64,000 nucleotides of DNA from Terriglobia bacterium (GTDB taxonomy: Bacteria > Acidobacteriota > Terriglobia > Bryobacterales > Bryobacteraceae). The notes below the pieces were generated by a model. The model saw only the letters and a list, made by a program, of their open reading frames with translations. It was not told the DNA's origin and searched no databases. The position numbers were made by a program, and so were the translations under genes. Within the stretch, counting starts at the first letter, position 1. Every line of letters starts with the position of its first letter. This document shows, piece by piece, positions 63,545-64,000 of this stretch. The stretch is from positions 1 to 64,000 of the forward strand of contig JANXYJ010000014.1 of NCBI GenBank assembly GCA_025350105.1. Reading direction: 5' to 3'.

Positions 63545-63875
63545 TTTTCAATTCCTGCCATTCTTTTTGAATCATCAACAACGCATCCGCGTCTTTTGCT
63601 GCAAAATTTGCAAGATTTCCGCCGCCCATCTTCCAGGCGAAAAACTTTTCCACCCACTCCACGCTCTTCGGATCGATGAACGACGTTGGGCACTCCTCCG
63701 TGAACGCACTTCCTCTGCCCCAAATCACTCTCGGCGCCCCGCGCTGCTCTTGTGGCAGCCATCCACACCGCCGCGAAACTTCCAACCCCTGCCGTCGGCA
63801 CTGCTCGCACGTCCACCCAGCACGATTTACGCTCCCCGCTTCCGGAGCGCAAAAAAAATGGAATGCGACAATTAG
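63531..63875 (-). CDS. Tail assembly chaperone GT-like extension, read by -1 frameshift
   Basis: Open frame CTA ATT GTC GCA TTC... LIVAFHFFCAPEAGSVNRAGWTCEQCRRQGLEVSRRCGWLPQEQRG... continues directly from the slippery A_AAA_AAC of the upstream ORF; no ATG upstream of the conserved-looking part. Confidence 0.65.
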   Translation of the reverse strand, partial: LIVAFHFFCAPEAGSVNRAGWTCEQCRRQGLEVSRRCGWLPQEQRGAPRVIWGRGSAFTEECPTSFIDPKSVEWVEKFFAWKMGGGNLANFAAKDADALLMIQKEWQELKNGVQ

Positions 63876-64000
63876 TTTTTTCTTTCTTCTCCGCTCAACC
63901 CGCTCTCGGCTTTAATCCGAATCAGGATCTCCTTGGCCAACTCCATCGGGCCCCGGTCGATAAATGTATTCGGCGTCGCGTCCTCGCCATCAATCGTCAG
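63872..64000 (-). CDS. Tail assembly chaperone G-like ORF, C-terminal part (runs off the right window edge)
   Basis: Open frame ending ...LTIDGEDATPNTFIDRGPMELAKEILIRIKAESGLSGEERKN*; missing from the ORF track because it has no start inside the window. Confidence 0.65.
   Translation of the reverse strand: MTIDGEDATPNTFIDRGPMELAKEILIRIKAESGLSGEERKN

What the first reader, a model, noticed from the sequence alone, without database searches (positions are those of the whole stretch)
63850..63890. Canonical A_AAA_AAC slippery heptamer joins two tail ORFs by a predicted -1 frameshift
Seen: the minus-strand ORF entering at 64000 ends GGA GAA GAA AGA AAA AAC TAA. The heptamer A_AAA_AAC (63881-63875) is in phase with the zero frame and is followed at once by the stop. 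After a -1 slip the next codon is CTA, and that frame stays open to the stop at 63531 (the tracked 63531-63785 ORF, whose annotated start is an arbitrary non-ATG codon). A possible stimulatory hairpin (CGCTCC...GGAGCG) lies downstream. Established: most tailed phages make tail chaperones G and GT by a -1 frameshift just before the tape-measure gene (lambda-type), and this pair sits immediately upstream of the candidate tape measure. The GT extension carries a CxxC...C zinc-ribbon-like motif (WTCEQCRRQGLEVSRRCGW), which may be unusual.
Basis: partly seen in the sequence, partly recalled or inferred. Interest (0 to 1): 0.82.

Follow-up and report, generated by a model that had tools for sequence, protein, structure and literature searches.

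The report
Frameshifted tail chaperone in domesticated phage cassette
A soil bacterium (order Bryobacterales, Acidobacteriota) probably makes two versions of a tail-building helper protein by having some ribosomes slip back one base at an almost perfectly conserved site; the gene sits in a 16-17 kb block of phage head and tail genes that this bacterial order has inherited for a very long time, which makes the block a candidate gene-transfer machine rather than an ordinary prophage.

Summary
On the minus strand a 135-aa ORF (63872 to 64279 of the contig; it starts beyond the window) ends AGA AAA AAC TAA. The heptamer A_AAA_AAC is at 63881-63875. The -1 frame is open to 63531 with no ATG/GTG/TTG before its conserved domain. 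Comparison makes a programmed -1 frameshift very likely: in 108 of 111 homologous loci the same heptamer is in phase with the second part in the -1 frame (exceptions: an assembly gap, A_AAA_AAT, a downstream 1-nt indel). A conserved stem-loop starts 5-6 nt after the heptamer (folding z about -2.1 there, about 0 elsewhere; one covarying pair; synonymous-site constraint). The extension T has four invariant cysteines and a confident predicted fold with no match in PDB or the viral structure library. The pair lies in a head-tail cassette whose capsid gene is in 205 of 258 genomes of the order, with fixed gene order, no nearby integrase, in-place decay and a tree matching RpoB. A 2025 paper reported this group as 'proviruses'. 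I interpret it as a GTA-like domesticated element; frameshifting and DNA transfer are unmeasured.

The parts
63872..64000 (-). G: zero-frame tail assembly chaperone ORF, 3' part (ORF continues outside the window to contig position 64279; 135 aa in all)
   Evidence: homologs in 30 of 61 genomes searched; invariant C-terminal KN
63875..63881 (-). A_AAA_AAC slippery heptamer, followed at once by the zero-frame stop TAA (63874-63872)
   Evidence: in phase in 108 of 111 loci and in all 26 relatives of the first set with readable sequence
63534..63875 (-). T: -1 frame extension, 114 aa (LIVAFHF...NGVQ, stop 63533-63531), with C-x2-C-x10-C-x24-C
   Evidence: four Cys in 104/104; omega 0.14-0.36 in four pairs; AF2 mean pLDDT 91.7
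63859..63868 (-). 5' arm of conserved, presumably stimulatory stem (UCGCA-U-UCCA), 6 nt after the heptamer
63805..63815 (-). 3' arm of conserved stem (UGGA-CG-UGCGA)
62936..63544 (-). candidate tape measure protein, 202 aa (171-255 aa in relatives)
   Evidence: phrog_3779 tail length tape measure, E 1.6e-6; lengths
62574..62933 (-). distal-tail-like protein, DUF2460; weak match to the Rcc01695 family
   Evidence: PF09343 E 3e-13; TIGR02217 E 3.7e-5, below cut-off
61772..62572 (-). second DUF2460-like protein with GTA spike/fiber domain
   Evidence: NF048003 56.5 bits, cut-off 36
57832..61749 (-). tail tip / central fiber protein, 1305 aa
   Evidence: PF13550 E 4e-10; phrog_31 central tail fiber J E 1.6e-17
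54829..57816 (-). 995-aa protein with TIM-barrel domain, last gene of the cassette
   Evidence: PF23845 E 1.3e-10; syntenic in relatives

Best explanation
The site is a programmed -1 ribosomal frameshift of the lambda G/GT kind. Most ribosomes read G and stop right after A_AAA_AAC. A minority, held up by the stem-loop that begins 5-6 nt downstream, slip back one base (tRNA-Lys and tRNA-Asn re-pair on AAA AAA) and make the 249-aa GT fusion. By analogy with lambda, G would coat the ~200-aa tape measure and the T domain, here probably a zinc-binding four-cysteine module, would recruit tail-tube subunits. The gene pair belongs to a 16-17 kb head-tail cassette that Bryobacterales have inherited mostly vertically; its likely role is to build a gene-transfer-agent-like, short-tailed particle. 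Shown by sequence comparison: heptamer, phase, stem, extension, gene order, congruent tree, in-place decay, no nearby tyrosine integrase. Inferred: that frameshifting occurs and at what level, zinc binding, chaperone function, particle production, DNA transfer. The confidence given is for the frameshift; for the GTA-like role see the section on the most novel reading.
For: Heptamer in phase and T in the -1 frame in 108/111 loci and all 26 first-set relatives with readable sequence. Synonymous codon bias at the heptamer. T under purifying selection with four Cys in 104/104. No start codon at all in the -1 frame before CxxC in 35 of 117 loci including the window; none of 73 GTG/ATG triplets at -24 has an SD-like motif. 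Folding z -2.13 +/- 0.18 in the window 10-62 nt after the heptamer start, about 0 in seven other windows. 92.5% of stem cells paired versus 33-44% in slid controls; 12 cells with changes on both sides versus 2.7 in shuffles. Pair 12-59 forms in 89/106 versus permutation maximum 78. Codon 3 of T ends in C in 116/117, against a GTG-preferring background. Spacer of 5-6 nt matches the usual 5-9 nt (PMC5009743). Cassette: fixed order in 26 genomes, RpoB congruence 13 of 18 splits versus random maximum 3, Mantel r 0.80, 0/5000, MCP in 205/258 genomes, integrases absent from the contig or at least 45 kb away in 12 genomes, relics at the same site.
Against: No reporter, proteomics or ribosome profiling data. 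G and T match no known chaperone family by sequence or fold, so the chaperone role rests on position and architecture. A_AAA_AAC may be less slippery in bacteria than A_AAA_AAG (own knowledge). Most of the 3' stem arm also encodes the W-x-C motif, so its conservation alone is not evidence of pairing. DNA packaging and transfer are untested. RcGTA-family similarity is partly below curated cut-offs.
Confidence: 0.9

Rival explanations
1. T is a separate gene translated from its own start or by coupling to G termination; the overlap is incidental.
For: A GTG or ATG at -24 in the open -1 frame occurs in 59 of 117 loci, and some database gene models start there or nearby.
Against: 35 of 117 loci, including the window, have no start before CxxC; none of 73 triplets at -24 has an SD-like motif. 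It does not explain the invariant heptamer, the phase or the conserved stem.
Confidence: 0.04
2. Transcriptional slippage on the A run, not ribosomal slippage, makes the fusion.
For: A run of six A's lies at the site.
Against: Six A's is short for slippage by bacterial RNA polymerase (own knowledge). The exact heptamer phase, the conserved terminal C and a stem at the ribosomal spacing point to the ribosome.
Confidence: 0.04
3. The cassette is an ordinary, order-restricted prophage or its decaying remnants rather than a GTA-like element. (This concerns the setting, not the frameshift, and can hold together with it.)
For: A 2025 study classed the group as proviruses (PMC11924767). Some species carry relics or lack it. 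Many hits are in IMG/VR.
Against: Fixed content of structural genes only, no tyrosine integrase within 45 kb in 12 genomes, tree largely congruent with RpoB, shared flanks in several genera, purifying selection on all genes tested, longest contig among the 80 viral hits kept only 21 kb.
Confidence: 0.3

Closest known systems
Phage lambda G/GT -1 programmed frameshift (tail assembly chaperones)
   Same: Two overlapping ORFs just before the tape measure gene; slippery heptamer near the end of G; extension in the -1 frame; short product ends soon after the site (PMC5009743).
   Different: Heptamer is A_AAA_AAC, usually directly followed by the stop; a conserved stem-loop lies 5-6 nt downstream; the T part carries four invariant cysteines and matches no known family or fold.
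RcGTA (Rhodobacter capsulatus gene transfer agent)
   Same: Chromosomal head-tail cluster with a short tape measure (about 216 aa in RcGTA from the description in PMC7296036; 171-255 aa here), DUF2460/Rcc01695-like distal tail protein, GTA spike/fiber domain, Phage-tail_3 domain with weak megatron similarity; mostly vertical inheritance in the RcGTA family (PMC10883770).
   Different: Capsid is of the P22/phrog_283 kind; hosts are Acidobacteriota; the cassette carries a G/GT frameshift with a four-Cys T; DNA transfer not shown.
Bryobacterales provirus group (i) of PMC11924767 (2025)
   Same: Almost certainly the same element: the KBS 96 contig named there (IMGVR_UViG_2522125054_000002) holds an exact 40-mer of the KBS 96 capsid gene.
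   Different: Described there as proviruses; the main text does not mention frameshifting or gene transfer agents.

Membership tests
Lambda-type G/GT tail assembly chaperone frameshift | Overlapping ORFs between tail tube gene and tape measure gene | tested here: met
   Order tube-G-T-TMP in the cassette genomes where the genes are in reach, except G036 without a TMP hit; TMP by phrog_3779; the tube assignment itself is weak (phrog_290, E 1.7e-5)
Lambda-type G/GT tail assembly chaperone frameshift | Second ORF in the -1 frame, no start of its own | tested here: met
   -1 frame in all loci with uninterrupted sequence bar one indel; 35/117 have no start before the domain; about half of the loci do contain a GTG/ATG at -24, without an SD-like motif
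Lambda-type G/GT tail assembly chaperone frameshift | In-phase slippery heptamer, conserved | tested here: met
   108 of 111 loci; exceptions described
Lambda-type G/GT tail assembly chaperone frameshift | Measured G and GT products at a set ratio | not testable with these tools
   needs a reporter assay or proteomics
Lambda-type G/GT tail assembly chaperone frameshift | Sequence or fold match to known chaperones (not strictly defining, since they diverge strongly) | tested here: not met
   No Pfam/NCBIfam family for GT; PHROG only single weak members; Foldseek no significant match
Gene transfer agent | Chromosomal structural gene cluster without integrase or replication genes | tested here: met
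   Cassette content and housekeeping flanks; integrase PF00589 not within 45 kb in 12 genomes; other recombinase families not searched
Gene transfer agent | Long-term vertical inheritance and purifying selection | tested here: met
   13/18 splits shared with RpoB; conserved flank and in-place relics; omega well below 1
Gene transfer agent | Particles package and transfer random host DNA | not testable with these tools
   needs culture work, e.g. with isolate KBS 96
RcGTA family | Homology of the structural proteins to RcGTA | tested here: inconclusive
   NF048003 above cut-off; TIGR02217 and GTA_megatron below cut-off; capsid is P22/phrog_283-like
Zinc ribbon / zinc finger | Four conserved potential metal-ligand cysteines | tested here: met
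   104/104
Zinc ribbon / zinc finger | Zinc bound; known zinc-ribbon fold | tested here: inconclusive
   metal binding not testable; predicted fold has no significant match

The most novel reading that the evidence does not exclude
The cassette is an undescribed family of gene transfer agents in Acidobacteriota (order Bryobacterales), maintained across most genera of the order, that builds very short-tailed particles using a frameshift-made chaperone with a new four-cysteine fold.
Probability: 0.55. Interest if true: 0.85.

Novelty: new variant of a known kind. Interest (0 to 1): 0.62.

Why it matters
G/GT frameshifting is common in tailed phages, so the mechanism is not new. What is new is its near-perfect conservation, with a stem-loop and a four-cysteine extension unlike known folds, in a head-tail cassette kept across most genera of a soil bacterial order without a nearby integrase. 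Conserved frameshifting in a non-mobile cassette argues that functional tails are still being selected. That makes a gene transfer agent in Acidobacteriota directly testable in a cultured isolate (KBS 96), in a phylum where none was found in the literature searched here.

Tried and rejected
An apparent one-frame G-T fusion in G017 (L003) and L056 is an N-run at the junction, not a fusion. One database protein (P0093, 214 aa, on a 1.6 kb contig) does read G and T in one frame with a shortened A run; a sequencing or assembly error was not excluded. A first RpoB tree was wrong because an antisense ORF was picked for one genome; it was repeated with the correct frame. Rfam gave no meaningful family. 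Structure searches for G and T gave no usable match. Tailocin was rejected because capsid, portal and terminase genes are present and open in the cassette genomes.

Full report
Observation. The minus-strand ORF entering at 64000 ends GGA GAA GAA AGA AAA AAC TAA. Contig sequence beyond the window (locus L002 = G000:C79:60000-79999) gives its ATG at contig position 64279, so G has 135 residues. The heptamer A_AAA_AAC is at 63881-63875, in phase. The -1 frame after it reads LIVAFHFFCAPEAGSVNRAGWTCEQCRRQGLEVSRRCGW... to the stop at 63533-63531. It has no ATG, GTG or TTG until TTG 63785, inside the domain. The fusion would be 249 residues.

Conservation of the frameshift. The fusion protein found relatives in 30 of 61 genomes. 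In all 26 relatives with both parts and readable sequence, T is in the -1 frame and A_AAA_AAC is in phase at the junction; four of them have the zero-frame stop about 60-200 nt further on but keep the heptamer. In a larger set of loci from genome and viral collections (some genomes overlap the first set), 108 of 111 had the same arrangement. The others were an N-gap (L056), A_AAA_AAT (L211) and a 1-nt indel downstream with the heptamer intact (L099). The zero-frame stop follows the heptamer at once in 93 of 108. At the heptamer Lys is always AAA, but only 32% of Lys codons elsewhere in G are AAA; the preceding Arg codon always ends in A, against 23% elsewhere. Protein constraint therefore does not explain it.

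RNA structure. A stem pairs positions +12..+22 (heptamer start = 0) with positions +48..+59 in most relatives. Its 5' arm begins 5-6 nt after the heptamer, in the usual 5-9 nt range (PMC5009743). Folding energy in the 52-nt window just downstream has mean z -2.13 +/- 0.18 over 60 sequences, against about 0 in seven other windows. On 71 sequences 92.5% of stem cells pair, against 33-44% in slid controls, and 12 cells change on both sides against 2.7 in shuffles. The outermost pair covaries (89 of 106 paired, permutation maximum 78). Codon 3 of T ends in C in 116 of 117, although GTG dominates valine elsewhere in T. Much of the 3' arm encodes the W-x-C motif, so its conservation alone proves little; the third-position constraint on the 5' arm and the outer-pair covariation are the informative parts, and permutation does not remove relatedness of the sequences.

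Independent start for T. 35 of 117 loci, including the window, have no start codon in the -1 frame before the CxxC. About half have GTG or ATG at -24, but none of the 73 such triplets has a Shine-Dalgarno-like motif. The coupling model is therefore unlikely.

T domain. Four cysteines are invariant in 104 of 104, with spacing C-x2-C-x10-C-x24-C in the window. AlphaFold2 gives mean pLDDT 91.7, and Foldseek finds nothing significant in PDB or BFVD; no library of cellular predicted structures was available. 445 homologous proteins were found; of the best 120 listed none has a Pfam domain and most have no name or are called hypothetical. Zinc binding is inferred. G also has no recognised family or fold.

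The cassette. Around G/GT lie TerS-like, TerL, portal, scaffold-like, capsid (P22-like, phrog_283), two further genes, tail-tube candidate, tape measure, two DUF2460-like proteins, a 1305-aa tail tip protein and a 995-aa TIM-barrel protein. The second DUF2460-like protein matches GTA_spike_fiber above its cut-off. Gene order is the same in 26 genomes including the window's own. The tape measure is 171-255 aa wherever found, similar to the roughly 216 residues described for RcGTA (PMC7296036), so tails should be very short. The capsid gene is in 205 of 258 genomes and 75 of 84 genera of the order; T is rare outside it in the class.

Domestication evidence. Cassette and RpoB trees share 13 of 18 splits (random maximum 3; Mantel r 0.80, 0 of 5000 permutations). 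One RpoB grouping conflicts with two well-supported cassette splits, so occasional transfer is not excluded. No tyrosine integrase lies on the same contig, or within 45 kb, in 12 genomes, and flanks are housekeeping genes. Within the genus, genomes lacking the capsid gene still have the flanking M24 peptidase gene; some hold relics at that site with the middle deleted, such as a TerL start next to the 995-aa gene. All cassette genes tested are under purifying selection, T included (dS is near saturation in the more distant pairs). The longest of the 80 viral-collection contigs kept was 21 kb.

What is known. Lambda G/GT frameshifting is textbook (PMC5009743). A 2025 paper reported a Bryobacterales-specific provirus group (PMC11924767). 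Its KBS 96 contig carries the KBS 96 capsid sequence, so it is almost certainly this element; the paper's main text mentions neither frameshifting nor gene transfer agents. Searches for gene transfer agents in Acidobacteria or Acidobacteriota found no description of one, within an open-access library only.

Verdict. The frameshift is very likely real (0.9). The mechanism is a known kind; the RNA element, the four-cysteine extension and the setting make it a new variant. The GTA-like reading of the cassette is the more interesting claim (0.55) and is not proven.

Noticed in passing
L281/L288 (G014), L285/L290 (G021), L286 (G019), L287 (G005): Relic cassettes at the same site: in G014 and G021 a TerL start is joined to the 995-aa gene, in G019 only the 995-aa gene is seen at the contig start, and in G005 the capsid start is joined in frame to the 995-aa gene.
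   Followed up: partly
L037/L038 (G044), between TMP and the first DUF2460-like gene: About 3.5 kb of extra ORFs (208, 114, 242 and 601 aa) follow the tape measure gene; seen only in this genome among those compared.
   Followed up: no
L263/L264 (G036), after T: No tape measure gene is found between T and the first DUF2460-like gene (52 nt apart); it could be a loss or an assembly error.
   Followed up: no
window 57832-61749 and 54829-57816: The 1305-aa and 995-aa proteins share a 68-residue stretch at 54% identity, possibly a shared module of the tail tip.
   Followed up: no
P0093: A 214-aa predicted protein on a 1.6 kb contig reads G and T in one frame with a shortened A run; real in-frame fusion or sequencing error is open.
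   Followed up: partly
G234, G178: A few genomes have two or three capsid or T-like matches, so a diverged second copy may exist.
   Followed up: no
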